NCBI GenBank assembly: GCA_030789695.1
Contig: CM061132.1
Coordinates: 159,694,817 to 159,758,816 of the forward strand
From: Scilla litardierei
Lineage: Eukaryota > Streptophyta > Magnoliopsida > Asparagales > Asparagaceae
DNA: 64,000 bases
Direction of reading: 5' to 3'
This document shows positions 31,472-64,000 of this stretch, piece after piece. The stretch's first letter is position 1; every line of letters begins with the position of its first letter. The notes beneath the pieces were generated by a model, which had not been told where the DNA came from, made no database searches, and was given only the letters and a program-made list of their open reading frames with translations. The translations under genes and the position numbers were made by a program.

Positions 31472-33778
31472 CTATGGAGCGTTGCTCGACGCTTGGTCTT
31501 CGGCTCTCAGACCCTCCGTACTGACCTTGGGGGCTCCCTCTTCCTCCTCGTCCTCCTCCCCCTCTGAGGCCGCCAGCACCTCAAAATCAACCTCGAGCGG
31601 AGGGTGGAGAGCTCGAGCCCTTTCCGTGATCCTCTGGAGGTATGCCTCCCACCCTTCTTCTTGGCCCCTCTCCAGTCCTTCCCCCGGCCTATCTCCCACG
31701 CTTTCTTTTTGGCATGGGCTAGCTGGGGAGCGAAGGTCTTCACCTGGAATTGCCGGAATTCCTCCATCCTCATCAATAGCTCCTCCTTCGCGGCATTTGC
31801 TTGCCCTTCCAGTTCGCCCATCCTGACCCTACCCTGCTCAGCCTCGTTCTCCAGCTCGGCCTGGCGGGTGAGTCCGGCGACGACCTGCTTCTCCAGCCCC
31901 GCCATGTGCGCTTGGTACTCCTCGATCGACGTCCGCTGCTCGGCATACGACTTCTTCAGCTTGGCATACCTAGACTTCTCTCGGTCAAGCTCCCCCTTCA
32001 TCCTCGCTACCGCAGCCTCTGCCTTGATGATGGCCAAGGTGCGGCACTGTAGGGCGACCATCAAAGCAGTGGCCTGCACGCCCGAACAAGGGAAAGTTAG
32101 GTTCGAGAGCGGTAAACCCTAAGACACCCATAGAATAGCCCGTCAACATACCTGCACAAGATGCCATGTCACGGTGGCTTCCAGCCGCTCCGAACCAACG
32201 TGCGACAGGGATTCTTTGTCCCTGGACAGCTGGCAGTTCTCAGCGATCCTCGTCGCCACGCCAGCCTCGTCGAAGATCGACTCGTCCTTTCTAACCGGGT
32301 AGGTCGCCCCCAAGAGGGCGTCTGCCGGAAACTTATCGACATCGGCCTTCTTCAATCGAAACGTCGCCAGCTTCTCCTCGCAGCTCGAGTGGGCGGGCCT
32401 CTCCAGAGAGGACCGTGGGCAGCCATAAGGCCATGATTCCTCGGCGGTCGACCCAACCCCCGAGCTCGACCCTATGGGGCCTTCCTGAAGTGCCGAGGTC
32501 GGATTAGGAGCCGATGACGAGGCGGCCTGCTTTTGATGTTCCCCTTCGCTCGGAAACACACTGCCTACCGGACGACCGCCCTCTACCTCCCCTACCCCGT
32601 GGTTAATGGTCTGGGGGACGTCGACGTGCCTGACGCCCTCGACAGGCCCGCCAGCGCCAACCTCAACGACGGTCGACCTCTCCACCGTCTTCGTCTTCTT
32701 TGGCCTGCTGAACTTCTCGGCCTTCTTGGACTCTTTCCCCTCCCTTGACCTCTTCTTATCGCTCTTAACGGGCGACAGAGCAACTTGTTCATCGGCCCCC
32801 TGCTCTGCGACCATCATTTCGTCGGCCATCCTATCCAGGTCCTCAAAGGATAGACTCATCATCGGATCTGCAAAAGAGAAGGAGTTCAGGGTGAGCAAAT
32901 GAGAAATGGAAAACACTTTACTAAGGTTACCTTCGGGCCAGATGAATCAAGCTATCATCTTCGGCTTGGCGAGGCTAGCGTACTGCCTGCCCTCCGGGGT
33001 ACCGCCTCTAACCGCATCGCCCGCTCTGCCTCAACCTCGCTCAGACGGACTCCCTTCCTCACCTAGGGGTTGAGCATGCCCCAGTCCGACTTTATCACCA
33101 GGTCGACAGGCGTGGAGACAAACATGAACGACTTCCACCAGCCTTTGATCTTCCCCGGCAGGCCCTGGATGAGGGGGTGTCTCTTTCTCGTCGATAAATA
33201 ATAGTACGACCTCAACCTCTTGACCGCGAAGAAGTGGCGAAACAGGGGGAGAGTCGGACTAATGTTGTTCCTTGCACAGAGAACGAGAAACCCGACTATC
33301 GCGCTGACAGAGTTCGGCATCAGCTGTAAGAACGGTAGCCCGAGAAAGTTCAAAATCTCGAGGTACAACGGGTGAAGGGGGAAGCGCAACCCCTGTTCGA
33401 AGCACGCCACATAGATCCCGATTCGCCGTCCTTCGTGAAACATACGCGGTCCGAAGTGGTCGGCAGGCAGACTGTGTAAGGCGGCCTGAGGTACTTCGCG
33501 CGCACTGTGGAGACGACGTCTATCCGTGCTTCTGACCTCTGACTCGTTATCTCGGCAGGCATGCCACCGGCCTCGGCCACGGTCACACGGGCCCTCGCAG
33601 GTGATCTCGCTTTCGACTCTAGGGGCACCTTCCCCTTCCTTGGGTCCCCGCTCCCTACCGCAGACCCCATCCCAATGCGGCCATGACTCCCCGGCGACAC
33701 CTTCCCTACCACCTCCACTGAATCTGTCGTGGATCTGCCCGTCGACCCCGACGACGGGGTTGAGGATGAAGAAACCAT
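31472..33778 (-). pseudogene. Transposase_28-type (PF04195-like) gene, cassette 1, broken
   Basis: ATG at 33778. Exon 1 (33778 to about 32940) encodes a Ser/Gly-rich start and the 'putative gypsy-type transposon' domain: FEQGLRFPLHPLYLEILNFL, IVGFLVLCARNN, FFAVKRLRSYYYLSTRK, GWWKSFMFVS. Exon 2 (32152-32867, AG/GT supported) is Lys/Ser/Pro-rich and ends with TWHLVQ. Exon 3 (32073 down to 31472) is a coiled coil (AAVARMKGELDREKSRYAKL) with an acidic tail (EGEEDEEEEGAP). Lesions: a one-base shift near 33420, a TAG after GMLNP (33063-33065), and a shift near 31700 before the tail. Genes of this kind lie antisense near the 3' end of some Tat-lineage gypsy elements (from memory). It has its own TATA box. 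Biochemical function unknown. Confidence 0.75.
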
Positions 33779-33956
33779 CTCGGAGAAAGAAAAAGAAATA
33801 TACCTATCGACTCCCAGCTACGGTGGCGGCGGCGGCGGCTTCGACGGCACAAGCTTCGGTGACGACTTCGGTGGCGACGAAGGCGATGAACTCAGACAAA
33901 GATGAGATCTCTAGGAAATTCTGAAGCGAGAAACTCTTCCGCAACGCCCCTCACCC

Positions 33957-41238: not shown

Positions 41239-42109
41239 TGTAAGGACCCTGTCTATGGGGAAAACATTAGAAGGGGGGTTGAATAGTGTTTATGCAAATT
41301 TAAAAGAAATTTACGCCAAATAAAATGCAATCCAACAAATAGTGCGGAATAGAAAAACAACCCAAAGAGAAACACACGCAAACGCAGATATGTTTCAAGG
41401 GTTCGGATTGCCCAAGTCAACTCCCGACTTGTTCCCGATAATCCTACGTCCCTACAACCCGGATACCACTGGATACTCAAGTTAGAACCATAACTTGAGG
41501 TTTTCTTAAAAACCCACGTGTAGCAACCCTACAAGTGCAATCGAATACAATCGATGTCCTTGACTCCCACAACCAGGGAGCAAGTAAAAAACCACTCTCA
41601 CAACCGAGAGCACAATTCAAATAAAGAAGTTATGAAATCTGAAAGCAACAATTACAATCACCTATGCCTTGAAGTAGAACTTGAAGGAGAAGTGTGATGT
41701 GTGTTGAAGAACTCTCTTGGAAGAGAGGAGAAAAGCCCTTTCTCTTGACTGCACCAATTGCCTAGAAGATCAATCTTTGGTTCTAGGTTGGAGAGCAAGA
41801 GAACAAGATTTGGAAATACTTAGGGCTTTGGATTTGAAAGCTTTGATCTTTGGAAATGAAAGCTTGAAGGATTTTGCAATGAATGAGTAACCTTCCAATG
41901 AAACAGTAGAAGCTCTATTTATAGCTTTCTCAAATCCACAAAACAGTTTAGGCAAAAACCCAATCGAAATTCGTGAGAAAAATCTCAACGGATACTGTCG
42001 ACTGTTGAACAATCCACAGTCGACTGTTGCACAGTCAGCAAGGGTGGGTGAGAATTCATAACGGTAACTTACCACGTGGACAGTCGACTGATGAAGCAAA
42101 GACAGTCGT
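41239..42109 (-). repeat. Sirevirus 3' LTR, outer part
   Basis: Matches 60972-61858 apart from about 13 differences and one 19-bp gap. It is cut by element C at 42110. Confidence 0.9.
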
Positions 42110-45100
42110 TGATCGCTCCGGGACGTACACCCAGAGAACGATTGTAGTTTTACCGCAAGCGCACGGCGTAGTGGCGAGCGGGTATCGAACACGAGGAGGT
42201 GGTGTTGGTTCCAATCTATCCTAGGTTGGTTTGACTACGAATGTATTATTGGTGGAGATGGCTATGGTATGATATAATGGAAATGGTGGTGGATGTCGGT
42301 GTCGGTGATAAAGAAATCGGTCAAATATCGATTCAAATACAATATAATAAAAGAGGGAATTTGCCTTGCGGCGATCCTGTCACAATCGTCGGGCAAAGTA
42401 TGGGGATATAAAATCAAATAAAGACGTCTAGGGCTAGGGAATTCCCACTACGGAGCGTCATACATCATCGTAAATAGTGAATCTCAATATTACTAGACTT
42501 GTGTTGAGGTGAACTAGTCGTAACTGAATAGAGAACCAAGCTCACGCTCTCGCGCTATTGCCGGTCTATAGCAACCTAGATTAGGGCCCAATCTCTTGCA
42601 AACCCTAACCTAAGCCGCTAGCATGAAGATCGACGTCATCGTTCAATCGCTCCTCGAGCCCACTCTCGTGCAAACTCGAGTTACGATCTAGGTTGTGATA
42701 GTTCGTATTCGTCCAATCTCTTGCAAACGAATATGGGTATAGATTTACAATTAAAAATCCTAGCTTTGGTCCAATCTCTTGCAAACCAAGTCTAGAGAAA
42801 TCCAATTGTAAATCTAAATCGAATATCTAGGCCTTCCCATCGATTAGAATCCAATCTCTTGCAAATCCCAAATCGATGGAAATCCCTAACTATCCGTAGT
42901 AAATCAATCACAACCTAACCTCCTAGCAATTCTAGCAATTTAGAAATTCATTCATCACAAATATGAAATTAGATCCATAGGGTTCATCCCCAAACCCTAG
43001 AACAACAAATATACTCTAGCATAGCAATAAGGATATATGAATCAATAAAAAATCATTGCTTGCATACAAAAAGATAGAAAAACAAAGATTCAAATAAAAA
43101 GAAGAAAATACTTAGCTTTAATGAAGATCTTCAATCCAAAATACAAGCTTTTAGATCCAAGAGGGGGCCTAGGGCATGGCCTAACCTCTAAAATAAATCC
43201 CTCCTAAAACATCTTGGGGGCTAAGAAAACATAATGAGGATCCCCTCTAATGGTGGCTACAAACCCCTTAAATACTCCCCCAAAACCCTAGCAAGAAACC
43301 CTAGAAAACCCCTCAAATTCGTGCCCAAAAACAGCCCAAACCGCAACTTAAAATCTGGGCCCAGGCCGCACTCGGCCGAGTGGAATATGTGACCCGGCCG
43401 AGTGACACTGACATGCAAATTCCAGCACTGCAGCATCAGTTTGCAGAAATTCCCTAGATTTCATCCGACCTCCGATTTGCGCGTTCTTGGCGGCGTTGGA
43501 ACCGTCATGAAGTCTACTATCCATAAAAATATGAGAAAAATACTTTGATTGCTGGAATGATAGCAGATTTCAAAAGAGTGAGAGGCTGTCTGAAAATCTG
43601 GGCGCTGCATGTCCTCGGCATCACTCGGTCGAGTGGCAAATGTCACTCGGCCGAGGGGCATTTGGTACTCGGGTGAACGGCTTTCGTCACTCGGCCGAGT
43701 CGGGCTTCTGGGGCAGACTGACGGATTACAGTAAGTTGGACATTTTGGCTTGCCGTCGTCTGGGTGCCACTCGGGCGGACGGAGTCTCCGCACTCGGCCG
43801 AGTCGGCGTGCGATGCTCGGCCGAGTGCACGCTGATACATCTCTGTTGCGTGTCCGATCTGGCCGGCCGAGCGGGGTCTCAATGCTCGGCCGAGTGACTC
43901 CTTCACTCGGCCGAGTGGCATGCTGAAAATGCCCAATCTTCATCTTTTCGCTCCCCCGTCGCTCCTACGGCGTTCTTTCTTCTTCCACTCCTCTTCCATT
44001 ACAGAATAACCCTCAAAAGGGCCATGGTTGACACTTCGGAGTGGGCGCAAATCCTCTTGATCTCATAATAGATCAAAATCGCTCCATATATCCTGAAATA
44101 CGACAAAAACAAGAAATAGTGAAAAGCATCGCAATATTGTCGAATAATCGTGAAAAGCGTGATATGGGCGATCAAAACGGTATGCAAATATGCAGAAAAA
44201 AGGTGTAAAATATGGACCGATCAAAATCCCCCAAGCTTACCTCTTACTCGTCCTCGAGGAAGATAAGTAAAAAGACGAACTCGGGAGATGAAAAATAAGG
44301 GAAATGAAATAAAAGAATACGAAGTGGAAGGGGTCGCTAGATTCTTCTCTCAGATCTCAAGGCATAAGCTACACATCACGATAACTTGGAAAATACAAAT
44401 CACATGCTATGAGGATTTCATATCTTACATAAACATGGTACTTGCAAGCTTTTAAGAACAACAAAAGGGATTCTCTAAATTCATACAATCAGTTCATATC
44501 CACGTCACGCATTTCATAGGATTCAATATACAAATGTTGGCGATGCACTTTTCAATCAAAAGTTATAAATGAAGCATATATGATACACACCAAGCATGCA
44601 ATGGAGAATAGAATAAGAGTCATGGCATTCACATATTTGTTTCAAATCATGAAAAATCTCCATATCTAATATATTGTGCTAAGTTTCAGCATTATCAAAC
44701 TTCCCCATTCGTGCGCCTCTCCACTCTAACGTCGCACTCACTCATATGGTCAAATGAGTTCACCCCCCCAAGCTTAGCTTGAGGCATCGCATCTAAAGGA
44801 ATATGATAGTGGAAAATGGGATTTTTGCCTTGGTTTTCCCAAGTATTTTGTGGCTCCAATAATGAGATAGAGAAACATTTTTTTTTCTTTTTTCTTTTTT
44901 TTTTTGAACTTTTTTGTTTCTCACTTTTCTTTTTGGATTTTTGTAGGAGCTATATGATTTGTATTTTTGGCTTTTGGCTCCTTTTTGGCTTTTTGGACTT
45001 TTGGAGCTAACTTTTTCTTTTGTGGGGATTTTTGGGAAATAGATGCGATATAATTAGCTTTAGGAGGTGAACTCAAGTGACATGTAGAGAATAAAAAGAT

Positions 45101-46006
45101 ATATGTGGAGGAAGAAATAATGTAACACTCGGTTCACTCTAAGATGTGCACAAACGGTTCAATAAGATAATACATCAACTAAAACTCATATGTAAGCATG
45201 TATATTCTCAATCATCTCAATAAATAGCGAAGTCAAGCAGTAAAGTTTACAAACATATCAGGCATGCAACAGAAGGTGAATGAGACAATAAAACTGATGC
45301 TTCAGATATACTAATGATGCGTGAATCTTGGTGCATTTCCAACAAAAGCATACTAAACACTAATCCATACATTTAGTTTCAATTAATATCATGCATTCAT
45401 GTAGAGGAATCATCAAAAGAAATAGATTTGCAAGCACATGTGAATAGCAAGACTATGGAATACTCTAAGTAGCATGGCAAGGAATAATAAGCATCGTGAT
45501 GGGTGCTAAAGCAATAAGAGATATCATCATACAAAACTCATCTAGCGGAAGAAGAGAGAGGAAAATAAAGAAATAAAAATAAAAGAGGGGAAAGAAAAGA
45601 AAATCAAGCACACAATATGATGCATGAACATACATAAAAGGAAAATAAGATGGAAAAATCAAAAAGATGATGCAAAAATTTTGAAAATTTTTAAAAAACC
45701 CTAAAATAAAGTAAAAATGCAACTAATGCATCTAAATGGCATGGAAATGCACTCTCCCAAGCTTAAACTTCACATTGTCCTCAATGTGATCGTAATGAAA
45801 GAATATGAGGAACAACGATAATAATAAGGGGGTGAATGAAAAATGATGAAATGAATGACATGAAATCCTAATGCAACTACATGCACATACAATGATGCAT
45901 GAGAGCGCCTTCCCCCAAGCTTATACCAAACAATCCTATTCAAATGACTTGACCAAAAATGTCATGGCTTTGCAAAGCGTGATCAAGTCAAACGAATAAG
46001 AAAGCA
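42110..46006 (-). repeat. Element C 3' LTR
   Basis: 3897 bp, nearly identical to the other copy. The same palindrome cluster lies at 43370-43930 and the same CCAATCTCTTGCAAA repeats at 42585-42870. ORFs in it (for example 43461-43943 minus) are translations of the palindrome repeats. Confidence 0.88.
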
Positions 46007-46209
46007 AGGTCTCACTTGAAAGAAATGCTCGAATGTGGTGAGCAAAAGGATGTGACACATCAAAATATAAAGTGGACAATTAATATATATAATGGGTTTG
46101 GGGTGTAAAAATTTTTGTTGCCATCATATGAGGTAATATTTATTCAAGCAAATCTATACGGTCCTCTCGCTGTCGAGAGAATTCGTGTTTATTTAAAGCA
46201 TAAAAATTT
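46007..46209. other. Element C interior, 3' non-coding part
   Basis: Short AT-rich stretch between the ORF end and the 3' LTR. No strong polypurine tract is obvious. Confidence 0.5.
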
Positions 46210-47874
46210 CTACACTACTGGATTGATATCACCTGTAGCAAAAGGCGGATCCAGTATCTTTGCCGGTGCAGGCAACTGCTCCAACTGCTCCTTCCGTGGC
46301 TCTGCCAGGCGCACATGTCCACGGACACCAACGAACTCTAGCAATGCATCCTCCAGCATTCCCACAAGGACTCCACCTGTACCCTGCAGAGAATAGGATG
46401 CATCAGTTCGCTGCAAAAATTTCACCCTCATAATAAAAGTATTCCAAAGAGGATCGTCAATAGAAATATATGAAATAAATAGTGGTGGACGATACTTCCC
46501 TGGAAATAATCCAATATCCTCACGTGCCGTGATAGCTGTCTCCACGGTGTCTTCTCTATGCTGCTCAGGTAAATCTAGATCATAGGTGTGGACCCCATCA
46601 AGATGCTCCTCATCATCATCGGACTCATCCCAGTGCACCCCTTGATCATATTCATATGTGTCCATGGGTGCTAACTCCTCGCTCTCCTCCACATATACGT
46701 CCCATCGTACCTCTTGATCGTATGTACATGAATCCTGCAAAAGGCACGATGAATCATAAAAAACATCATACACGGGAGGGAAATCAAAGATAAAGGGCGA
46801 GGGAGTAAAGAGATCTCCCTGAAGGGGGGCCAAAAGCTCTGTGGGGTAGTCCTCTGCATCAGTGGGAGGATGAGGTGGCTGCGGAAGCTCTAATGGAGGA
46901 GGATAGTGCTCGGGATCCTCATGAATGGCTGTGTCCTCGTCCCGATGCACGACCTCCTCGGTGATAAGCTCTGGCTCTGTGTGTAAGGCCTCCTCAAAAG
47001 CATGCTCTGACTCCGTATGTGAGGCCTCCTCGGCAATATGCTCTGGCTCGATAGCGTGCTCCTTTGCCTTCTCATCAACTATCAATGTAGGCTCTCTCTG
47101 GGATGGTGATGCTGGCTGCTCAGGTGTGTCAACTTGTGGGGATGTATCATGTGGAGGGGAATGCCCGCAAGAAATCCGAAAATATAGTCTATCCCCCTCA
47201 AGTCTGACATGGATGTCCTCCTCAATTGTTCCTGCAGCTGAAACACGGTTCATAACAAAATCTGCAAATCGTAGCTCAAATGCATCACCTGCCGTAATGC
47301 TCTCTGAACCGGTGAACCTCACTGACTCCAAGAGACCCTCCAATAATCTCTGAAATGCGTCCTCCTCTGGCTACGCATATGACTCAGTTTCTGCTTCCTT
47401 CACTGCCTCTTCGTCCATCCACTCTTCATATGCAATAAATGTATCGTAGGAAGTGGGATCGACGACGGCACATTCTGGCTCTGGTAGTAAGTCTGGCGAT
47501 GCTTCTTGCCCATAAAATGAAGAAGCAGAACTGATATCTTTGGAAATCCCTTCAACCTTAAGCATGAGCATATTCATTTCAAGTTGCCTCTTCACCCGTT
47601 CCAATAGAAGGTTACCCTTTTCAAGCCCGGCTTGCACTTCAACCTGGTGTGCATGCATCTCATCAAAAAAGATCCTTTGTCTCTCATCAAGCTCGGGCCA
47701 GTGCATCTCCTCAAAAAGGTATTCGCCCATCTGAGCACTCTGATCAAAATAGTATTCTCCCATCTGAGCATTCTGATCATAATAGTATCCTCCCATCTGA
47801 GCACTCTGATCAAAATAGTAATCTCCCGTCTGAGAATTCTGATCAAAATCTGTGGTCCACGTAGTATAATCCAT
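46210..47874 (-). CDS. Unrecognised acidic ORF of element C with one in-frame amber codon
   Basis: The only long ORF of the interior: ATG 47874 (MDYTTWTTDFDQNSQTG) to 46210, about 554 codons, with one TAG at 47371-47373. Both sides are in the same frame, so a single change would open it. Visible features: four tandem repeats of about 13 residues (FDQSAQMGEYY type) at residues 15-60; a helical, charged region with coiled-coil look (QAGLEKGNLLLERVKRQLEM); after the stop, ADFVMNRVSAAGTIEEDIHV; three imperfect EEAxHTExEH-type acidic repeats; and a C-terminal block FPGKYRPPLFISYISIDDPL to AEPRKEQLEQLPAPAKIL. There is no zinc knuckle, protease, RT or integrase motif. I do not recognise the family. 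Preservation in a young element argues that it is or recently was translated. Confidence 0.55.
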
Positions 47875-48037
47875 AGCACCTGATCAACAAAGATAAATAC
47901 CTGGAGAAAAGATATCAGTGGCACAAAAGAATATAGAAATGATAATAATGGTGGCAGGGGTGAAAATTTCCTTTTTATTTTTATTTTTTTCGTAGTCTAA
48001 TCAACCTAATTGTGACAAATTGGCACCAACGGAAACA

Positions 48038-48057
48038 CCTCCCCGGCAACAGTGCCA
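48038..48057 (-). other. Element C primer-binding site
   Basis: TGGCACTGTTGCCGGGGAGG on the minus strand, close to TGGCGCCGTTGCCGGGG (aspartate tRNA 3' end) used by Tat/Athila-type elements. It differs at two positions in the first 17. Confidence 0.75.
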
Positions 48058-48063
48058 AAAACT

Positions 48064-51000
48064 TGATCGCTCCGGGACGTACACCCAGAGAACGATTGTA
48101 GTTTTACCGCAAGCACACGGCGTAGTGGCGAGCGGGTATCGAACACGAGGAGGTGGTGTTGGTTCCAATCTATCCTAGGTTGGTTTGACTACGAATGTAT
48201 TATTGGTGGAGATGGCTATGGTATGATATAATGGAAATGGTGGTGGATGTCGGTGTCGGTGATAAAGAAATCGGTCAAATATCGATTCAAATACAATATA
48301 ATAAAAGAGGGAATTTGCCTTGCGGCGATCCTGTCACAATCGTCGGGCAAAGTATGGGGATATAAAATCAAATAAAGACGTCTATGGCTAGGGAATTCCC
48401 ACTACGGAGCGTCATACATCATCGTAAATAGTGAATCTCAATATTACTAGACTTGTGTTGAGGTGAACTAGTCGTAACTGAATAGAGAACCAAGCTCACG
48501 CTCTCGCGCTATTGCCGGTCTATAGCAACCTAGATTAGGGCCCAATCTCTTGCAAACCCTAACCTAAGCCGCTAGCATGAAGATCGACGTCATCGTTCAA
48601 TCGCTCCTCGAGCCCACTCTCGTGCAAACTCGAGTTACGATCTAGGTTGTGATAGTTCGTATTCGTCCAATCTCTTGCAAACGAATATGGGTATAGATTT
48701 ACAATTAAAAATCCTAGCTTTGGTCCAATCTCTTGCAAACCAAGTCTAGAGAAATCCAATTGTAAATCTAAATCGAATATCTAGGCCTTCCCATCGATTA
48801 GAATCCAATCTCTTGCAAATCCCAAATCGATGGAAATCCCTAGCTATCCGTAGTAAATCAATCACAACCTAACCTCCTAGCAATTCTAGCAATTTAGAAA
48901 TTCATTCATCACAAATATGAAATTAGATCCATAGGGTTCATCCCCAAACCCTAGAACAACAAATCTACTCTAGCATAGCAATAAGGATATATGAATCAAT
49001 AAAAAATCATTGCTTGCATACAAAAAGATAGAAAAACAAAGATTCAAATAAAAAGAAGAAAATACTTAGCTTTGATGAAGATCTTCAATCCAAAATACAA
49101 GCTTTTAGATCCAAGAGGGGGCCTAGGGCATGGCCTAACCTCTAAAATAAATCCCTCCTAAAACATCTTGGGGGCTAAGAAAACATAATGGGGATCCCCT
49201 CTAATGGTGGCTACAAACCCCTTAAATACTCCCCCAAAACCCTAGCAAGAAACCCTAGAAAACCCCTCAAATTCGTGCCCAAAAACAGCCCAAACCGCAA
49301 CTTAAAATCTGGGCCCAGGCCGCACTCGGCCGAGTGGAATATGTGACCCGGCCGAGTGACACTGACATGCAAATTCCAGCACTGCAGCATCAACTTGCAG
49401 AAATTCCCTAGATTTCATCCGACCTCCGATTTGCGCGTTCTTGGCGGCGTTGGAACCGTCATGAAGTCTACAATCCATAAAAAATATAAGAAAAATACTT
49501 TGATTGCTGGAATGATAGCAGATTTCAAAAGAGTGAGAGGCTGTCTGAAAATCTGGGCGCTGCATGTCCTCGGCATCACTCGGTCGAGTGGCAAATGTCA
49601 CTCGGCCGAGGGGCATTTGGTACTCGGGCGAACGGCTTTCGTCACTCGGCCGAGTCAGGCTTCTGGGGCAGACTGACGGATTACAGTAAGTTGGACATTT
49701 TGGCTTGCCGTCGTCTGGGTGCCACTCGGGCGGACGGAGTCTCCGCACTCGGCCGAGTCGGCGTGCGATGCTCGGCCGAGTGCACGCTGATACATCTCTG
49801 TTGCGTGTCCGATCTGGCCGGCCGAGCGGGGTCTCAATGCTCGGCCGAGTGACTCCTTCACTCGGCCGAGTGGCATGCTGAAAATGCCCAATCTTCATCT
49901 TTTCGCTCCCCCGTCGCTCCTACGGCGTTCTTTCTTCTTCCACTCCTCTTCCATTGCAGAATAACCCTCAAAAGGGCCATGGTTGACACTTCGGAGTGGG
50001 CGCAAATCCTCTTGATCTCATAATAGATCAAAATCGCTCCATATATCCTGAAATACGACAAAAACAAGAAATAGTGAAAAGCATCGCAATATTGTCGAAT
50101 AATCGTGAAAAGCGTGATATGGGCGATCAAAACGGTATGCAAATATGCAGAAAAAAGGTGTAAAATATGGACCGATCAAAATCCCCCAAGCTTACCTCTT
50201 ACTCGTCCTCGAGGAAGATAAGTAAAAAGACGAACTCGGGAGATGAAAAATAAGGGAAATGAAATAAAAGAATACGAAGTGGAAGGGGTCGCTAGATTCT
50301 TCTCTCAGATCTCAAGGCATAAGCTACACATCACGATAACTTGGAAAATACAAATCACATGCTATGAGGATTTCATATCTTACATAAACATGGTACTTGC
50401 AAGCTTTTAAGAACAACAAAAGGGATTCTCTAAATTCATACAATCAGTTCATATCCACGTCACGCATTTCATAGGATTCAATATACAAATGTTGGCGATG
50501 CACTTTTCAATCAAAAGTTATAAATGAAGCATATATGATACACACCAAGCATGCAATGGAGAATAGAATAAGAGTCATGGCATTCACATATTTGTTTCAA
50601 ATCATGAAAAATCTCCATATCTAATATATTGTGCTAAGTTTCAGCATTATCAAACTTCCCCATTCGTGCGCCTCTCCACTATAACGTCGCACTCACTCAT
50701 ATGGTCAAATGAGTTCACCCCCCCAAGCTTAGCTTGAGGCATCGCATCTAAAGAAATATGATAGTGGAAAATGGGATTTTTGCCTTGGTTTTCCCAAGTA
50801 TTTTGTGGCTCCAATAATGAGATAGAGAAACATTTTTTTTTTCTTTTTTCTTTTTTTTTTTGAACTTTTTTGTTTCTCACTTTTCTTTTTGGATTTTTGT
50901 AGGAGCTATATGATTTGTATTTTTGGCTTTTGGCTCCTTTTTGGCTTTTTGGACTTTTGGAGCTAACTTTTTCTTTTGTGGGGATTTTTGGGAAATAGAT

Positions 51001-51962
51001 GCGATATAATTAGCTTTAGGAGGTGAACTCAAGTGACATGTAGAGAATAAAAAGATATATGTGGAGGAAGAAATAATGTAACACTCGGTTCACTCTAAGA
51101 TGTGCACAAACGGTTCAATAAGATAATACATCAACTAAAACTCATATGTAAGCATGTATATTCTCAATCATCTCAATAAATAGCGAAGTCAAGCAGTAAA
51201 GTTTACAAACATATCAGGCATGCAACAGAAGGTGAATGAGACAATAAAACTGATGCTTCAGATATACTAATGATGCGTGAATCTTGGTGCATTTCCAACA
51301 AAAGCATACTAAACACTAATCCATACATTTAGTTTCAATTAATATCATGCATTCATGTAGAGGAATCATCAAAAGAAATAGATTTGCAAGCACATGTGAA
51401 TAGCAAGACTATGGAATACTCTAAGTAGCATGGCAAGGAATAATAAGCATCGTGATGGGTGCTAAAGCAATAAGAGATATCATCATACAAAACTCATCTA
51501 GCGGAAGAAGAGAGAGGAAAATAAAGAAATAAAAATAAAAGAGGGGAAAGAAAAGAAAATCAAGCACACAATATGATGCATGAACATACATAAAAGGAAA
51601 ATAAGATGGAAAAATCAAAAAGATGATGCAAAAATTTTGAAAATTTTTAAAAAACACTAAAATAAAGTAAAAATGCAACTAATGCATCTAAATGGCATGG
51701 AAATGCACTCTCCCAAGCTTAAACTTCACATTGTCCTCAATGTGATCGTAATGAAAGAATATGAGGAACAACGATAATAATAAGGGGGTGAATGAAAAAT
51801 GATGAAATGAATGACATGAAATCCTAATGCAACTACATGCACATACAATGATGCATGAGAGCGCCTTCCCCCAAGCTTATACCAAACAATCCTATTCAAA
51901 TGACTTGACCAAAAATGTCATGGCTTTGCAAAGCGTGATCAAGTCAAACGAATAAGAAAGCA
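48064..51962 (-). repeat. Element C 5' LTR
   Basis: 3899 bp, beside the primer site. Internal motifs: four CCAATCTCTTGCAAA repeats in 48540-48830, about a dozen CACTCGGCCGAGTG palindromes in 49320-49880, a CT-rich/T-rich block near 50830. Confidence 0.88.
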
Positions 51963-52429
51963 AGGCAACTGTAGAACAAAATACAGTCGACTGTTTTTGA
52001 GACAGGCGACTGTAAACTGTTCAGCAGTCGGCTGTTATGAACAATCCTAGCACAAACAAAAGAGAATAGAATTGGGATCAAAGGACAAAGGTCTAGAGAT
52101 GTCCTATGACCGAATGGAGATGTGTGTGAGTGCTCCATCAAAGTTCTACTTCTAAGCTACATATTAGAAGAGATAAAAGAAAATTTACATTGACGAATAA
52201 TCTCTTCTTTCCATTGTATGAGCTTGAAGTCTTTACAGAGCTTCAAACATCAATCTACAATCATCCAATTCAAATCATTTACCTTCAATCACGTTTGTGA
52301 GTCATCCATTGCTAGTTGATCTTCATAGTAAGCTTAGGCAATGGATTAACTGCAAAATAGGGGATTAGTCACAAGTATTTATGTTTGCTCATCATTAACA
52401 CCAAGTAGGGAGAAGTCCAATACTCAACA
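51963..52429 (-). repeat. Sirevirus 3' LTR, inner part
   Basis: Matches 62323-62789. The segment equivalent to 61859-62322 of the complete LTR (about 464 bp) is absent at the junctions with element C. Confidence 0.9.
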
Positions 52430-53941: not shown

Positions 53942-54574
53942 TCAGTCGATATGAATGACTGAGGGGTCCGACGGACATCCGAAAGATCGGAACAAAAGCC
54001 GAGCAGAGCGACGAGTAGGAAAAGTCGGAGTCTTCCTCTTAGAAGACGAAGCATGATTAGCAGAGGAAACAGCAGGAACATGAAGTGGAGTCTGGGCATT
54101 GGAGGTCTGAACCAAAGAGGGTTTTGGTGTGAAACCAGGAGGAGGAGATACACAAGTAGGAGCAGATACCTCAGAGGTAGCAAACATAGCCTGAAGCTCG
54201 GGAGGAATGGGACAACCAAGATGCTTAAAAGAGTTTAGCTGAAGCTTAAGCAAAAGCGAGAGCTTCTCATCCAAAGAAACGGAGAGAATTTCAAGAGCAG
54301 AGACACGAGCGTCCAACTGATGAAGAAGGAACTCAGTGGACCTAGAAGGATGCACAGCAGGCCGAGAAGAGTGTTCAGCAGCATGCACGGAAGGGATAGG
54401 GTCACTGACAGAGATATGAAGAGGCTCTCCCGAAGATTGAGGTGAAGAGGGAGCCGGATCAGGTTTTGGTGAAGGAACAGGTTCATTGAGGAAGTCGAGA
54501 GAGACATTAGGGAAGAAATGATCGAAAAGAGCCATGGCCGAGCACGGAGCTAGGGCAAGAAACAAAACGAACAA
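53942..54574 (-). CDS. Extra Sirevirus ORF downstream of pol (env-like position)
   Basis: Some Sireviruses carry an additional 3' ORF called env-like. This one is 210 codons. A likely start is the internal ATG at 54535 (MALFDHFFPNVSLDFLNEPV). It has a Pro/Ser-rich N-terminal half, a predicted coiled coil (LLHQLDARVSALEILSVSLD) and a basic Ser/Arg-rich C-terminus (TRRSARLLF). I see no clear signal peptide or membrane segment after that start, so an envelope role is not supported. Position and strand support membership in the element. Homology was not tested and it may be truncated. Confidence 0.5.
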   Translation of the reverse strand: MFVLFLALAPCSAMALFDHFFPNVSLDFLNEPVPSPKPDPAPSSPQSSGEPLHISVSDPIPSVHAAEHSSRPAVHPSRSTEFLLHQLDARVSALEILSVSLDEKLSLLLKLQLNSFKHLGCPIPPELQAMFATSEVSAPTCVSPPPGFTPKPSLVQTSNAQTPLHVPAVSSANHASSSKRKTPTFPTRRSARLLFRSFGCPSDPSVIHID

Positions 54575-54839
54575 ACCCTAACAAGTCACGAGATAGACGG
54601 AAGCGACCTAACCTCATTGAGTGACAGAACAAAAGGCAACGACTCCTTGAGATTGACGCACGAAAGGGAGCAAAATTGACGGCAAAGGAACATCAATCGA
54701 GCGGGAAAACACACAGTCGAAACGGAGGAGAGAGAATCGACGAGGGGAAATGATCACGAATACAGATTATAAAATTTGGGGAAATCAATCTGAGCCGTTG
54801 GATCAAGGAATCGACGGCTCGGATCAAATCACATGAACC

Positions 54840-55205
54840 GACACAGCATATGACAGTCGACTGATGAACAAAAGTCAGTCGACTGGATGAAATGATAAAA
54901 TTAAAGCTCAGAAAGATGGGCAGTCGACTGGTAAGTATAATGCAGTCGCATGTTGACTGGACAGTCGACTGACATATACACAACAGTCGGCTGGCAGAGA
55001 ATTAATACAGATCACAAAAATAACAGAGAACACTGTAAAAATTCGACAGATAGTACAGTCGCCTGATAACTAAATTGCAGTCGCCTGTTAAGCTAACAGT
55101 CGACTGTAAAACAGTCATCAGTCGGCTGTGCGAAAGATATCAATTTTCATATAGAGGATATAGAGTAGGGCAGTCGACTGTCAAAAGAAAAACAGTCGTC
55201 TCTCC
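54840..55205 (-). repeat. Palindromic CAGTCGACTG cluster downstream of pol
   Basis: About a dozen copies or one-base variants of CAGTCGACTG (also CAGTCGCCTG, CAGTCGGCTG) are spaced 15-40 bases apart. The same motif crowds the LTR. Repeated palindromes in these two places are described for Sireviruses. 54575-54839 and 55206-55470 are otherwise featureless. Confidence 0.85.
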
Positions 55206-55470
55206 TGGTCCAAAAATGCACAGTGAGATAGAATTCCAGAGAATAATAACACTCACCCTAGGACCTATACTCTAATCACAAATACATCGTAAAATCATTA
55301 TGAAAACAATAAATCCATTGAAACACAAATTACTCCAATCAACTTCGAAAACTCATGAAATCAAATAAGTCACAATTGCCTTTCTTAATCTCATAAAACA
55401 ATAACGCACATGAAGAAAGACAATAAAAAATATGAGCTCAATAAGGAGTTATAGCATGAAAATTGAGCTT

Positions 55471-58400
55471 CTAGATTTCAGATTCACCCATAATTCTCAA
55501 TTCTCCACGCAACCTCACAAATAAACCTTCTTTAAGTGGTTTAGTGAAGATATCGGCAATTTGTTTTTGGGTTTCAATGTACTCTAAGATGATGTCCTTC
55601 TTAGCTACATGATCATGTATAAAATGGTGTCTCACGTCTATGTGTTTGGTACGGGAGTGATGTACCGGATTCTTGGAAAGACAAATAGCACTTTGGTTAT
55701 CAACCATGATAGGGCAAGTATCACAATTGACACCATAGTCACTAAGAGTGTGTCTCATCCAAAGAACTTGTGCACGTGCAAGACCCGCGGCAATATATTC
55801 CGCTTCAGTCGTGGACAATGACACCGAATTCTGTTTCTTAGAGAACCAAGAAACTAAGGAATTTCCTAAGAAATGGCATGTGCCACTAGTACTTTTCCTG
55901 TCGGACTTGCATCCGGCAAAGTCGGCATCACTATATGAGATTAACTCATACGTGCTAGACTTAGGGTAAAGTAACCCATAATCTAAGGATTGATTGAGAT
56001 AACGAAATATTCGTTTAACCGCAATCAAGTGTGACTCCTTAGGTCTTGCTTGATATCTAGCACATATACATACGGAAAACATGATATCGGGCCTACTAGC
56101 GGTTAAGTAAAGTAAGCTACCGATCATACCTCGATATAGACGAACGTCTACATCTTTTCCGCTTTCATCCTTGTGTAGATGAGTAGTATTACTCATAGGA
56201 GTCCTTTTGCTTGAAGACGATTCCATCCCGAATCGCTTAATAAGCTCCACTGTGTACTTTGTCTGATTTATAAAAGTGACATTCTACATTTGTCGAATTT
56301 GCAATCCAAGGAAGTAGGTGAGCTCTCCCATGTGGCTCATCTCAAACTCATCCTTCATAGACTTGGAAAATTCTTGACAAAGATTAAAGTTAGTAGAACC
56401 GAAAATAATATCATCTATATACACTTGAATCAAAAGAATGTTATTTTCATAATCTTTAATGAAGAGTGTAGAATCAATTTCTCCCATTTTAAAACCTAAA
56501 TTCAAAAGAAAGGTCTTAAGGCGATCATACCAAGCTCTAGGAGCTTGTCTCAATCCATACAACGCTTTCTTAAGTTTGAAAACATGGTTTGGAAATTTCT
56601 CATGAATAAAACCGGGAGGTTGAGAAACATAGACTTCTTCATTTACAAATCCATTTAAAAATGCACTTTTAACATCCATTTGAAATAATTTAAAATTCTT
56701 ATGGGATGCAAAAGATAGAAGCAACCTAATAGCTTCTAATTTAGCTACGGGGGCAAAGGATTCTTCGAAATCAATATCTTCCTCTTGCCGGTAGCCTTGA
56801 GCTACTAACCTTACTTTGTTCCGTGTGATTACCTCGTTTTCATCCATCTTGTTCTTGAAGATCCATTTGGTCCCAATAGCTTGGTGACCACTTGGAAGAG
56901 GTACAAGTTCCCAAACTTCGTTTCTCTCAAATTGCGCTAGTTCTTCTTCCATTGCCACCATCCAAGAGCTATCCTCACAAGCTTCTTGAATGTTCTTTGG
57001 CTCAATGGTAGAGACGAATGCGCAATGGGAGAATTCTTCAATTCTTGATCTCGTTCGAACACCCACACCAATATCTCCAATAATTTGGTTATGGGGATGG
57101 TTGCGAACGGTTGGATAAGCTTTGGGTAAACCTGGATCACTAGGAACAACTTCAACAACTTCGTTAGAAGTGTTAGTCTCAACAATATTATCATTAATCT
57201 TAACATTATTAAGAGAGTCACAAAGAATCTCTACATTATCATCATCAACATGAGGAAAGTCAAAATCTTCATAAAAAGATACGTGAAGTGATTCCTCAAT
57301 CGTTGAAGAAGTTTTGTTGTATATCCGGTAGGCTTTGCTACGTGTGGAATATCCAACAAAAATTCCTTCATCGGATCTTGGCTCAAATTTGTCTAAATTA
57401 CCAAATGTGTTCTTTATAAAACATTTTGAACCAAAGAAACGAAAATATTTCACTTGAGGCTTTTTATCATAAAACAACTCAAAACAAGTTTTGTTTATTC
57501 GGGGTCTCACTAGGATCTTATTGAGCACATAGCATGCCGTGTGCACCGCTTCTGCCCAAAATTGTAGTCCTAAATGACTATCATGGAGCATAGTGCGAGC
57601 ACACTCAATAAGAGTCCTATTCTTTCTTTCTACAACACCATTTTGTGGTGGTGCACGAGGAAAGGAAAAGTTATGAGTTATCCCGGAGTCATCACAAAAC
57701 TTAGTAAAAGACTCATTCTCAAATTCTCCTCCATGATCACTACGAATAGTGATAATGGTGGATCCTAAAAGATTCTGAATCTTCTTTGCAAATTTGGTAA
57801 ACTCTTCATGAGCTTCATTCTTATTAGTTAAGAATGAAACCCAAGTAAATCTAGAAAAGTCGTCAACGACAACTAGTCCATAATGAGCATTACCTAAAGA
57901 AGCGGTTCTAGTTGGCCCAAATAAATCTAGATGAAGAAGTTCTAGGGGCCTCTTAGAAGTAATCCCTTCTTTAAGCTTAAATGAAGATTTACTTAGTTTA
58001 CCTCTTTGACATGAATCACAAAAGTTTTTCTTATTAAAAACAATCTTAGGAAAAGCTTTGACTAGATCATGCTTAGCTAACTTATATAAGTGCTTAAAGT
58101 GAACATGACCAAAACGGCGATGCCATAATAGTTGTTCACTTGTGTTAGCAACTAAGCAATGTTCTACGGTTTTAGGCAAGCTTAAATAATAAATATTTTT
58201 ACGCCTAATACCGGAAAATAAAACATTTGAATCACAATCAACAATAGTACACAATCCTTCTCCGAAGTTAACCTTGTAACCTTTGTCACAAAGTGACTTA
58301 TGGAAATGAGATTGTGACATAAACCACTAACAAGATAAACATTAGTAATTAGGGGTTTGGAAGGATTACCAACGATACCTACTCCAATGCTGGTTCCCTT

Positions 58401-58520
58401 TTGATTACCTCCAAAAGTGACTGTTGCACCATCTTTGATGCTAATCACTTCGGAGAAGGGATCTCCCGTCATGTGTTTGGAGCAACCGCTATCAAGAATC
58501 CATCCTTTCCCTTTAGAGCT
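55471..58520 (-). pseudogene. Sirevirus pol (protease, integrase, reverse transcriptase, RNase H)
   Basis: Minus strand, order typical of copia. Protease signature LDSGCSKHMTGDP near 58490. Pre-integrase [15 protein letters not shown] with CDSCQRGK. Integrase core with D (LLHLDLFGP), D ([11 protein letters not shown] region) and E ([12 protein letters not shown]). RT with [38 protein letters not shown] and the active site YIDDIIFGS. RNase H with YSDADFAGCKSDRKSTSG, VSLSTTEAEYIAA and KHIDVRHHFIHDH. Lesions: a missing base near 58309 just after the protease and one TAG at 56284-56286 between RT and RNase H. An additional TAG lies upstream near 58612. The remaining 678- and 259-residue frames are intact, so the copy decayed recently. 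Confidence 0.92.
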
Positions 58521-58796
58521 AATAAGGCTTTTATTGCTCTTCTTCTTTCTCTTGGGTACCTATATAATATACCATAAGCTTATGGTACCCAATGTTTGTT
58601 GGGTCCAAGGGGATTAGCCCTTTGGAAGCCAAGTCCAAGTGGACTTCCACTTCCCAACATAGTTATTATTTCTAATTACATCATGAAAGTAGGAATCAAC
58701 ATAAGCATTCCTAACATTTAGACTAGTGTTCTTAGGACCCCAAATAGTGTACATCTTGGGAGTCCTATTCCTAATTGCATGCATATGTGTTGGATT

Positions 58797-60943
58797 TCAA
58801 TGTGGTGCATTCTTCTTAGGAACATGATTTCTAGCATAAAGATGTAGTGGAGGATATGCATTGTACATTCTAGGATGATATGTATTCTTGGAAACATGCA
58901 TATTATATGAAGCATATTGATGATGCATGTCATGTGGAGAATTAGCATACATGAAAGAATGATGTGTATGAGCATGTGGGTGTGTGGGAGCACGTACATG
59001 AGTATTTCTCATGTGTGGTTGTGTACGTGTCCGTGGGTGCGGAGCATAAAATGTGTCATGATTATCTACTTGTGAAGTAGGATGTTTCCTACGTGGATGA
59101 GTATTAGTGTACATATAAGTATGGCCTTGCTTTTGGTTTCCACTCTTAGTGGGTTTCTTGCCAAAAGGAAGAGAAGGTGATGTGGTGACATTCTTGGTAG
59201 GATTGCTACCTATAGTGTCTTTGACACCACTTGTGGATGCACCGGAGGAAGGCCTCACAAAATCTATAGTGACACCACAATAGGAGGTGCGAGCATTAGA
59301 TGCATTTGCTTTTACAAATCCAAGGCCAACACGATGTGTGGCCGGGAATTGGTTTGCAAGCAAATCATCCAATTGTCCTTGTCCCTTATTGAATCTCACA
59401 ATACGGGAGGACATGAGCTCAAATTTCTCCTTTAAAGAAGAAATGTTGGTATCCAAAGTGGACACCCGTGCTTTGAGCTCGTGCACTTGGGTTTTAAGAG
59501 AATCATTCTCTAATCCTAATCGTGTGTGGCGTGTAACTAGATCACTATTATCCATGGGATGTGTTTGATCTAGTTGAGATTTGAGGGAATTCACCTCATC
59601 TCTCAATGTGACATTTTGAGAAGCTAAGTTTGCTTTCTCAAGGGTTAAAGTATCAACAATGGTGTCATTGTTGATAATGCATGGAATGGATGACTTGCTA
59701 ACTTTTTTAAGCTAGAGTATCTAAGCATTAAAGATTGGTATTTAGCAAATAGTTCTTCATTAACTATACGAAGTTCATCCATTGTTACCTCGGTGTTATC
59801 CGTATCGGAATCACTCTCATCCGAGAGTGGGTCTTCAAGTGCCATGAAGCACATGTGTGTGCTCTCACCCTTCTCATCATCAGAATCGCTTGATGAGTCA
59901 TCACTTGAGTCATCAAAGGTACCGACGAGTCCTTTCTTCTTGTCTTTCTTGTTCTTGTTGGACTTGTGATACTTTGGTGCCTTCCACTTTTCTTTGTTGT
60001 TTAGCATTGGGCAATCCCTCTTGATGTGCCCTGGCTTATTACACTTATAACAAAGAGAGGAAGTAGCATTAGTAGACTCAAAACGTTTGTTAGAGGGAAA
60101 TTTACCTTTGCGGAAGAAGCGTTGGAACTTCTTCGCCACTTGGGCCATTTCACCCAAATCCATCTCGTTCTCGGATTCATCACTTTCAGAGGATGACGAA
60201 TTGGCGTTGAACGCCAAAGCTTTCTTCTTGGCCTCCGAGGGATTCATCATGGCTCGAATCTTCAATCTGTTATCCCGTCTTACTTCGTAAGACATAAGAG
60301 TCCCGATGAGATTCACCACGGTGTAGTTCTTCAAGTCATTGACCTCCTCAATGGCGATTGCTTGTCTTTCCCATTTGGAGGTCATCCCCATGATAATCTT
60401 CCTTACCTTTTCAGGTTCGGTGTAGATTTGGCCAAGGGCTTCCAAGTCGTTTGTGATGTCGATAAAGCGTCCGTACATCGACGCAATGCTCTCATTTTCC
60501 TGCATGTGAAACAAGTCGAAGTTTTGCACGGCAACATATAACTTTGAAAGCTTTACCTTATTTGTTTCCTCGTGGGTAACGATGAGATGGTTCCAAATTT
60601 GATATGCACTCTTACATGTGCATATCTTGTTGAACTCATTCGGGTCCAACGCACAATGAAGAGCGTTCATTGTTTTAGCGTTGTTGACTTCAGCGGACTT
60701 CTCGGAAGTCGTCCATTTCTCGAAATCATCTTCGGAGGGCTCGACGTACTCCTTGTGGAGAGTTCTCCAAAGAGAAGCACTCCTAAGGAATGTCTCCATC
60801 CTACACTTCCAATAACCAAAGTTAGTACCATTGAAACGTGGAGGACGTATCGTAGATTGACCTTCGAAAAGTGTGGACGCTCCATCACGGTCGTGATTGT
60901 TGTACGTAGGCAACGGAGGAACGTTGTTGTTGTTGGATGCCAT
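58797..60943 (-). pseudogene. Sirevirus gag
   Basis: Nucleocapsid/capsid polyprotein that packages element RNA. ATG at 60943 (MASNNNNVPPLPTY), 28 bases from the LTR. The capsid part (PRFNGTNFGYWKCRMETFLR; SMYGRFIDITNDLEALGQ) is followed by a CCHC knuckle CYKCNKPGHIKRDC near residue 305, a Lys-rich stretch and acidic serine runs. The first frame continues to 59645. A one-base shift in an A-run near 59705 moves the C-terminal coiled coil (SLKSQLDQTHPMDNSDLVTR) to another frame, which ends with TGA at 58797 after a His/Pro-rich repeat region. The two parts overlap in order as expected for the family, so this was one gag. It is damaged, but most of it is well preserved. Confidence 0.85.
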
Positions 60944-60957
60944 AGATAAAACCTTGC

Positions 60958-60969
60958 GCTCTGATACCA
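60958..60969 (-). other. Sirevirus primer-binding site
   Basis: TGGTATCAGAGC on the minus strand, two bases inside the 5' LTR end. It is complementary to the 3' end of initiator methionine tRNA, the usual copia primer. Confidence 0.9.
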
Positions 60970-60971
60970 AT

Positions 60972-62789: not shown

Positions 62790-63262
62790 GGGTTTTCCAT
62801 AGCCAAAGGTCTTAACGATGCAAATCACATCAACTCAGGATCCCAAAGTATACACCCATTTGTAACGCTCAGAATCCCGAAGTGTTCATGAGCAGAGTCG
62901 CTTGTATAGATCAGGGAGAGTTAGAGAGCGTTCGTACTCTTTTTTTCTTAACTATGGTTTTTCCCATATGGTTTTCCATAGCTAAATATTTTAACGAGGC
63001 AAACCTCATCAACTCAGGATCCTGAAGTATCCACCCCATGTGAGACTCCTACTACACTCAGAATCCTGAAGTATTCATGAGCAGAGTCCACACCTATGGC
63101 TGGATAAGGGTGATGGTTATGAACGAATAAAGTGATGAGTGGTTAGGATTGTGTCTTATCGTATAGATAAGACGTTATCTATTGTATCTTGTCTTTGTAC
63201 GCTCCTCTCCTGCTATAAATAAAGATCTGGGGGGTTCCTCCCCCAGATGATGATTCATAACA
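62790..63262 (+). repeat. LTR of copia copy B, second part
   Basis: Resumes with the duplicated GGGTT and runs to GATGATTCATAACA at 63262. The two parts total about 596 bp, matching copy A's 593-bp LTR. Confidence 0.85.
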
Positions 63263-64000
63263 AAAATTATGTTTTAAGCATCTGCGCATAAACACATGTT
63301 TCAAGGGGAAGACAAACAATGGTAATGCCAAATTTACCGAATTACCCAAATTGCGACTATGAGATTGCCGTAGTCAAGTCTCTGGTATTATATAGCGAAA
63401 TTAAACGCATAAAAAAATTAGCATATGTTAATATTACATATGATACTCCTACCGCAGACTAAATGCCAAAAAAATTTCATCATCATTTCCACCCCTTCTG
63501 AACAAAGACTGTCGCTAGAATATGATTATTGGATGGAAGCATTCAACATAAAGGAGACCCGATTATTTTGTCTCCGACTGACAAACAACAAATGGATGGG
63601 CTTTCCATCAAAAGAAACTAACAACAAAATCAATCCTACTACAATTGGTGTAAGATAAGAGCATGCAGTTTCTAAAGCATGATTTTAGTTCAGTATAGAT
63701 TATTAATCTCATTTACATAAGCTGAGGTTTGTTCTTATCCTAAAGATTACTTTTTTTGATCTTATCCTTCAAATTTTCCCTTAAAGATGTTTCTAATGGG
63801 AGCATGACGACCATCATCATTCTTCTACAATTTGGCAACCATACCTGATTACAAATTACTGTGATAACATCAAGTCTTATTAATTTATTGCTCGGCAAAC
63901 AGATCACACTCAAACAGATCACGCTCCACTCACACACAAACAGAAGAGCAGAAATCCTTACTTAAACTCCTTGCATTAATCAACGGTGTTTCTTATTCAA
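63263..64000. other. AT-rich flank with nothing recognised
   Basis: Sequence beyond the LTR of copia B. A plus-strand ORF at 63425-63658 and a minus-strand ORF at 63740-63937 look fortuitous. No target duplication matches the other side of copy A. Confidence 0.5.

What the first reader, a model, noticed from the sequence alone, without database searches (positions are those of the whole stretch)
42110..51962. Very young non-autonomous LTR element with a novel ORF
LTRs of 3.9 kb (about 0.4-0.5% different by eye) enclose 2.06 kb with no pol but one 554-codon ORF of unknown family. Most elements of this kind are non-coding. A conserved private protein suggests a specific partnership with an autonomous Tat/Athila-side element.
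Basis: partly seen in the sequence, partly recalled or inferred. Interest (0 to 1): 0.75.

Follow-up and report, generated by a model that had tools for sequence, protein, structure and literature searches.

The report
Protein-coding Athila-type partner retroelement, partly truncated
This stretch of a plant genome holds a damaged copy of a recently multiplied jumping element that cannot copy itself; instead of copying enzymes it carries a gene for one conserved acidic protein, part of which it shares with a companion element that has the copying enzymes but no shell-protein gene in the usual place.

Summary
The element is real but mis-measured. It lies on the minus strand. Its LTRs are 2.11 kb, not 3.9 kb; the other 1.79 kb of the repeat is the 3' internal region. 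The copy is best read as a tandem dimer (LTR-INT-LTR-INT-LTR) that lost its left end inside a Copia LTR.

The 554-codon frame is real as a family trait: 31 of 40 copies examined in this 3.68-Gb genome are uninterrupted. The window copy is broken by an in-frame stop at codon 168. Pairwise pN/pS is about 0.49, or 0.17 for codons 56-167. A second lineage, 54% identical, is also open.

It is not wholly private. Residues 163-334 resemble the pre-RT segment of a pol-bearing family with at least 75 near-identical copies. That partner looks Athila-side (ATHILA ORF-1 domain) and one copy carries a 96%-identical LTR. It is not autonomous either: in 34 of 36 LTR+PBS places its pol sequence (RT-RNaseH-integrase) starts about 0.1 kb past the PBS, with no gag or protease between.

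Best reading: a pol-less, protein-coding Athila-side element, mobilised in trans alongside gag-less pol elements. Boldest: a retroelement with split coding capacity. The gag source is unresolved; that search did not complete.

The parts
48064..50178 (-). upstream (middle) LTR, 2115 bp, TGATCGGTCC...GGAGCGATCA; serves as 5' LTR of the complete unit
   Evidence: same start in 18 of 20 fetched loci
42110..44223 (-). 3' LTR, 2114 bp
48041..48057 (-). primer binding site right after the LTR (tRNA-Asp type from memory); differs at 2 positions from the form seen in most other copies
   Evidence: the tRNA assignment is recalled, not tested
47371..47874 (-). first part of the conserved frame, 167 codons then an in-frame stop
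46210..47370 (-). rest of the same frame, 386 codons to its normal end
47374..47709 (-). codons 56-167, the most constrained stretch (pN/pS 0.17)
   Evidence: low-confidence helical model
47167..47370 (-). codons 169-236, the roughly 60-residue domain shared with the pre-RT part of the partner's pol and present twice in the L051-type frame
44224..46209 (-). 3' internal region, no long frame found, ending in a purine-rich tract at 44228-44238
50179..51965 (-). second, left-truncated copy of the 3' internal region: remnant of an upstream tandem unit
41239..42109 (-). host Copia LTR, part after the insertion
   Evidence: 41238-42109 matches 60971-61858
51966..52429 (-). host Copia LTR, part before the insertion; 464 bp of the LTR missing at this junction
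   Evidence: 51963-52429 matches 62323-62789

Best explanation
The window holds a 5'-truncated tandem dimer of a non-autonomous Athila-side LTR element. Shown: the family unit is LTR 2.1 kb, PBS, about 0.19 kb leader, 554-codon frame, 2.0 kb non-coding region, purine tract, LTR; its copies make 5-bp target-site duplications, and 31 of 40 examined keep the frame open. Shown: a pol family with at least 75 near-identical copies uses the same PBS and LTR-end type and carries RT, RNaseH and integrase directly after a short leader without gag or protease before them; one copy (L053) joins a window-type LTR to that pol. Shown: the frame shares a domain with that pol's N-terminal segment. Inferred: the RNA of the window family is reverse-transcribed and integrated in trans by the pol family's enzymes, and hybrids such as L053 arose by template switching between co-packaged RNAs. 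Inferred, weaker: the acidic protein is a gag-pol-derived remnant rebuilt with a new, possibly coiled N-terminal part, kept because it helps assemble the particle or bind RT through the shared domain.
For: Frame open in 31 of 40 copies ranked by similarity to the region holding it: 26 of 554 aa, 4 of 561 aa, 1 without the ATG. Of the other 9, 8 have premature stops (window included) and 1 a frameshift. No gap in 21 aligned copies across 1665 bp, against mean pairwise gapped bases per site of 2.0% in the 3' region and 6.4% in the LTR. pN/pS 0.485 among 13 open copies. Of 6 loci taken from the 40 places found by LTR similarity, 5 are open over the stretch fetched (3 window-type, 1 L051-type, 1 pol) and 1 shows no such frame; the length changes seen in the window-type frames (36 nt in two, 33 nt in one) keep frame. 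L051 frame: 54% aa identity over 367 codons, dN 0.344, dS 0.658. Domain match to pol: score 127 against 500 shuffles with mean 45, SD 7, max 71. Partner: RVT_1 1.2e-34, RT_RNaseH 3.7e-38, rve 2e-15, ATHILA ORF-1 2.2e-10 in one copy; 64 of 75 pol hits lie in frames of 1300 aa or more. pol query starts 101-102 bp after the LTR+PBS query in 30 of 36 places by coordinates, plus 4 of 4 further places read; 2 not examined. Shared LTR: C8:90196980-90199093, 96%.
Against: The 40 copies are the best-scoring of 6293 candidates for a query holding the frame, so their low divergence is partly choice of hits; synonymous divergence there (0.034) is also below LTR divergence (0.07), and the leader is low too. 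Variants shared by 2 or more of 35 copies are only mildly enriched for silent changes (36 of 107; p 0.019 or 0.088 by the transition weight assumed), and in 21 copies they did not differ significantly from singletons (p 0.12). Two premature stops recur: codon 168 in three copies and 352 in two, so broken frames may have been copied. Codons 1-55 and 236-400 show no constraint (pN/pS 1.78 and 0.98). One LTR-selected pair has dN above dS on few changes (L011 against L048, 1.17). Two typical pol copies have LTRs only 74-84% identical to the window LTR, and the 3 kb after L053's pol have no long match to the window element. The 36 pol places were found by likeness to a gag-less copy, so a gag-bearing relative with other LTRs is not excluded; the gag family search did not complete. 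No expression or particle data.
Confidence: 0.6

Rival explanations
1. Pure parasite: the element amplifies only by its cis signals (LTR, PBS, purine tract), and the frame is an inherited but useless remnant of gag-pol, open because the copies are very young.
For: Terminal repeats differ by only 0.15-1.23% in 18 of 20 loci (the other two gave short alignments: L023 1.76% over 853 bp, L027 0.47% over 215 bp); singleton changes look neutral (54 silent of 209); 9 of 40 copies are broken, and two of the premature stops recur in 3 and 2 copies.
Against: The L051-type and window-type frames have diverged to dS 0.66 with frame kept and dN half of dS; codons 56-167 pN/pS 0.17; no gaps within 21 copies while flanks have many.
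Confidence: 0.25
2. The protein acts as a regulator, for example of partner transcription or silencing, rather than as a particle component.
For: Very acidic (L011: pI 4.14, 124 D+E, 33 K+R), no match in Pfam, PDB sequences or the protein collection; extra ORFs in Retand elements have been proposed to be regulatory (PMC11963269, abstract read).
Against: Sits in the gag position after the PBS, and shares its domain with a pol N-terminal segment, which points to particle or RT.
Confidence: 0.15
3. One reading: one young element with 3.9-kb LTRs.
For: Two 3.9-kb copies at 0.41% difference.
Against: In 18 of 20 fetched loci the terminal repeat starts at the TGATC that lies 1.79 kb inside the window repeat (the other two are the second unit of a dimer and a rearranged copy); no target-site duplication and a host deletion at the left end; an intact tandem dimer with a single ATCAC duplication (L017 + L020).
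Confidence: 0.01

Closest known systems
pol-less Athila families of Arabidopsis thaliana (Marco and Marin 2008, PMC2410132; abstract, passages and section 8 read)
   Same: Athila-side elements without pol, keeping open frames under purifying selection; recombination among distant families; proposed cooperation in trans
   Different: Those keep recognisable gag or gag+env; here the retained protein matches no gag model, and the pol partner found itself lacks gag before pol
gag-less Retand clusters (PMC11963269; abstract, passages and section 11 part 1 of 2 read)
   Same: recently active gypsy elements lacking the GAG domain, some in high copy
   Different: Retand is Tat-clade with antisense TRP28 frames; here an ATHILA ORF-1 frame in sense, and no paired ORF-only family was described in the parts I read
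Additional ORFs in plant LTR elements (PMC7264820; part 1 of 3 read)
   Same: conserved extra frame of unknown function in most copies of a family
   Different: those discussed lie mostly between pol and the 3' LTR of gag-pol elements; this one takes the gag position of a pol-less element
TR-GAG and LARD elements (definitions recalled; TR-GAG papers seen in a search listing only)
   Same: non-autonomous LTR elements without pol
   Different: TR-GAG carries gag, for which no model matched here; LARD has no coding frame

Membership tests
LTR retrotransposon (non-autonomous) | paired LTRs, PBS, purine tract, short target-site duplication | tested here: met
   16 of 19 insertions with exact 5-bp duplication read by eye (1 with 4 of 5, 2 unreadable); the window copy itself lacks it
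LTR retrotransposon (non-autonomous) | no pol in the unit | tested here: met
   no Pfam pol match in the frame; no other frame of 200 aa or more in the internal region 44224-48063
Athila lineage (Ty3/gypsy, OTA) | RT phylogeny in the Athila clade | not tested
   the element has no RT; no tree was built for the partner's RT
Athila lineage (Ty3/gypsy, OTA) | ATHILA ORF-1 (PF03078) frame in the partner | tested here: met
   E 2.2e-10, one copy (L058, downstream of L053's pol); PMC6317226 passages report this domain in 16% of Athila elements, so it is typical, not required
Athila lineage (Ty3/gypsy, OTA) | no additional RNase H (Tat has aRH) | tested here: inconclusive
   one RNase H region and integrase in L057, no second RNase H match, but no aRH-specific model was used
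Athila lineage (Ty3/gypsy, OTA) | PBS complementary to tRNA-Asp | not tested
   TGGCGCCGTTGCCGGGG seen; complementarity and its link to Athila recalled
TR-GAG | frame encodes gag | tested here: inconclusive
   no gag model at E up to 10, including the L051-type frame; a strongly diverged gag could be missed
LARD | non-coding internal region | tested here: not met
   conserved coding frame
Retand (Tat) | antisense TRP28 (PF04195) frame | tested here: not met
   no such match in the frame tested and no frame of 200 aa or more on the other strand of the element; a PF04195 frame lies elsewhere in the window

The most novel reading that the evidence does not exclude
A retroelement with split coding capacity: one RNA class encodes only RT-RNaseH-integrase (plus ATHILA ORF-1), and at least two others, on a common LTR and 3' chassis, encode only the remodelled gag-side protein. 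They would be replicated together and complement each other, with the shared roughly 60-residue domain as the link between the separately encoded halves. No member would then be autonomous, and no ordinary gag-pol master would be needed.
Probability: 0.25. Interest if true: 0.88.

Novelty: new variant of a known kind. Interest (0 to 1): 0.62.

Why it matters
Non-autonomous LTR elements are usually treated as parasites. Here a pol-less family keeps a coding frame, and a pol-bearing relative with many near-identical copies has no gag or protease in the usual place while keeping long pol frames. If the two classes depend on each other, this is a plant retroelement moving towards a segmented genome, and the cooperation proposed for Arabidopsis Athila becomes directly testable in one genome.

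Tried and rejected
The 3.9-kb LTR was rejected. A known protein family for the frame: none in Pfam at E up to 10 (one non-significant 1.2 match to an unrelated coronavirus domain was ignored), none in PDB sequences, none in the large protein collection with the two window pieces and one open copy; that collection may hold few plants. Structure models of the two window pieces were poor (mean pLDDT 37 and 63), so no fold search was run. A gag reading of the L051-type N-terminus rests on a resemblance I noticed by eye; Pfam gave no match, so it is not claimed. Local alignment of the N-terminal parts of the two frame types gave nothing (score 23, shuffles 28). Neutrality of the frame was considered and kept as a rival.

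The gag family search (PF03732) was sent 14 times and never answered. The PBS pattern search was likewise sent 14 times and never answered.
Full report
Observation. The window is part of a 3.68-Gb assembly, taken to be a plant from its retroelements. Two 3.90-kb direct copies, 42109-46009 and 48063-51965, differ by 16 substitutions and 2 single-base gaps in 3901 bases. The element reads on the minus strand.

The repeat is not an LTR. Limits TGATCGGTCC...GGAGCGATCA give LTRs of 2115 and 2114 bp at 48064-50178 and 42110-44223. Of the 20 loci fetched around the best matches, 19 show LTR, about 3.84 kb internal, LTR (L023 with a truncated 3' LTR); in L027 only the 5' LTR was recognised. In 18 of 20 the terminal repeat starts at TGATC; the others are L020, second unit of a dimer, and L027. 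By eye the 20 loci are 19 insertions: 16 with an exact 5-bp target-site duplication, 1 with 4 of 5, 2 unreadable. The extra 1.79 kb in the window is therefore the 3' internal region of another unit. L017 and L020 together show an intact dimer LTR-INT-LTR-INT-LTR flanked by one ATCAC duplication, and matches at C6:134043468, 134049496 and 134055525, 6.03 kb apart, suggest three units in a row.

The window copy is best read as such a dimer with its left end removed. It sits in a Copia LTR, and 464 bp present in the other LTR of that Copia (61859-62322) are missing at the left junction. Of the 16 differences, 3 lie in the 1.79 kb of internal repeat and 13 in the LTR (positions); in a tandem copy they do not date the insertion simply.

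The frame. In the window the 554-codon frame 46210-47874 is interrupted at codon 168. Among 40 copies, the best of 6293 candidates by similarity to this region (the window and 39 others), 26 are open with 554 aa, 4 with 561 aa, 1 is open without the ATG, 8 have premature stops (window included) and 1 a frameshift. Intact copies exist; which change separates them from the window copy is not given here. Two stops recur, at codon 168 in three copies and 352 in two. Because that sample was chosen by similarity to the frame, 6 of the 40 places found by LTR similarity were also read: 3 have the window-type frame, 1 (L051) a strongly diverged frame, 1 (L053) a pol frame, all open over the stretch fetched, and 1 (L052) none. 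The length changes of the window-type frame there are 36 nt (L048, L049) and 33 nt (L050).

Constraint. Pairwise pN/pS is 0.485 in 13 open copies and 0.489 in 14 with the window. By segment, for the 14, it is 1.78 (codons 1-55), 0.17 (56-167), 0.29 (169-235), 0.98 (236-400), 0.36 (401-480) and 0.51 (481-554). In 21 aligned copies mean divergence is 2.1% in the frame with no gaps, against 6.3% in the 3' region and 7.1% in the LTR, with 2.0% and 6.4% gapped bases per site. Divergence rises near the end of the frame (0.049 and 0.024 in its last windows, then 0.045, 0.074, 0.087), though some LTR windows are as low as the frame. Part of this contrast reflects how hits were ranked, because the leader is also low (2.2%). 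In 35 copies singletons look neutral (54 silent, 150 replacement, 5 stop); variants in 2 or more copies are 36, 69 and 2, a mild excess of silent ones (p 0.019 or 0.088); in 21 copies shared and single variants did not differ significantly (p 0.12). The stronger test is window-type against L051-type: 367 codons, 54% identity, dN 0.344, dS 0.658, both open. Constraint is thus present but moderate and uneven.

Homology. No Pfam, PDB or collection match. Residues 163-334 align to the segment just upstream of RT in L053 (31% identity; score 127, shuffles 45 +/- 7, max 71 of 500), and a roughly 60-residue part of it occurs twice in L051. So the protein is partly derived from, or shares a module with, the N-terminal pol segment. 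Its first 157 residues show no relation to the L051 N-terminus.

Partner. L053 lies behind a 96% window-type LTR (C8:90196980-90199093), the PBS and a short leader; its frame, 1385 aa, holds RT, RNase H and integrase. Downstream lies a sense frame with the ATHILA ORF-1 domain; the 3 kb read there have no long match to the window element. In the genome 75 of 75 scored pol matches are at least 99% identical, 64 of 75 lie in frames of 1300 aa or more, and 2 of 75 have a stop inside the match. A search with LTR+PBS of the copy L055 gave 40 places; 4 lacked the PBS end and were left out. Of the other 36, 30 have a listed pol match starting 101-102 bp downstream; 4 of 4 further places read show the same; 2 were not examined. 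There is no room for gag or protease there. These places were found by likeness to a gag-less copy, so this shows that the subfamily is uniform, not that no gag-bearing relative exists. Two typical copies have LTRs 74-84% identical to the window LTR, so L053 looks like a hybrid of a window-type LTR with the pol family's interior, with the switch near the PBS.

Second ORF type. The N-terminal 153 residues of L051 match 150 of 150 scored places at 97% or more; 91 of 150 lie in frames of 500 aa or more, none above 608, and 3 have a stop inside the match. By coordinates, 2 such elements carry a window-type LTR and 3 the window-type 3' region from the lists.

Mechanism. Shown: shared LTR ends and PBS; a common chassis for two frame types; a hybrid; open frames; a pol partner without gag before pol. 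Inferred: trans-mobilisation and co-packaging. Open: where gag comes from, and whether the acidic protein replaces part of it. The search that would decide this did not complete.

Known relatives. Marco and Marin 2008 (PMC2410132; abstract, passages, section 8) describe pol-less Athila families with selected frames and recombination. PMC11963269 (abstract, passages, section 11 part 1) reports gag-less Retand clusters. PMC7264820 (part 1 of 3) reviews extra ORFs. PMC6317226 (passages) gives lineage features. In the searches I saw no listing of an ORF-only family paired with a gag-less pol family; that is a statement about those listings only.

Verdict. Partly confirmed observation; a new variant of a known kind; interesting because both halves of the system are incomplete.

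Noticed in passing
window 33063-33803 (-), with 31507-32946: A Transposase_28 (PF04195, E 5.7e-17) frame, typical of Retand-type elements; unrelated to the finding.
   Followed up: no
window 53942-62789 (-): A Copia element (RVT_2, rve, gag) whose 3' LTR hosts the insertion.
   Followed up: partly
L026 3' LTR end (position 9332 in element orientation): 3' LTR ends about 100 bp short at an internal CCA, yet the insertion has a GTGCG duplication: integration from an abnormal end.
   Followed up: no
G000:C4511:24823-26894 and 61786-63857: Two window-type LTRs (96% each) 37 kb apart on one contig, far more than any unit length seen.
   Followed up: no
window 43330-43920 and 49290-49880: The LTR holds many copies of a CTCGGCCGAG-type palindrome, seen by eye; not counted or tested.
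   Followed up: no
window 47710-47874 (-): N-terminal codons 1-55 are repeats of a Tyr/Gln-rich unit; one LTR-selected copy (L050) is 11 aa longer there, and this part shows pN/pS above 1.
   Followed up: partly
G000:C13:576385/586625 and C13:559135397/559146697: LTR+PBS pairs of the pol family 10.2 and 11.3 kb apart, suggesting tandem pol units too.
   Followed up: no
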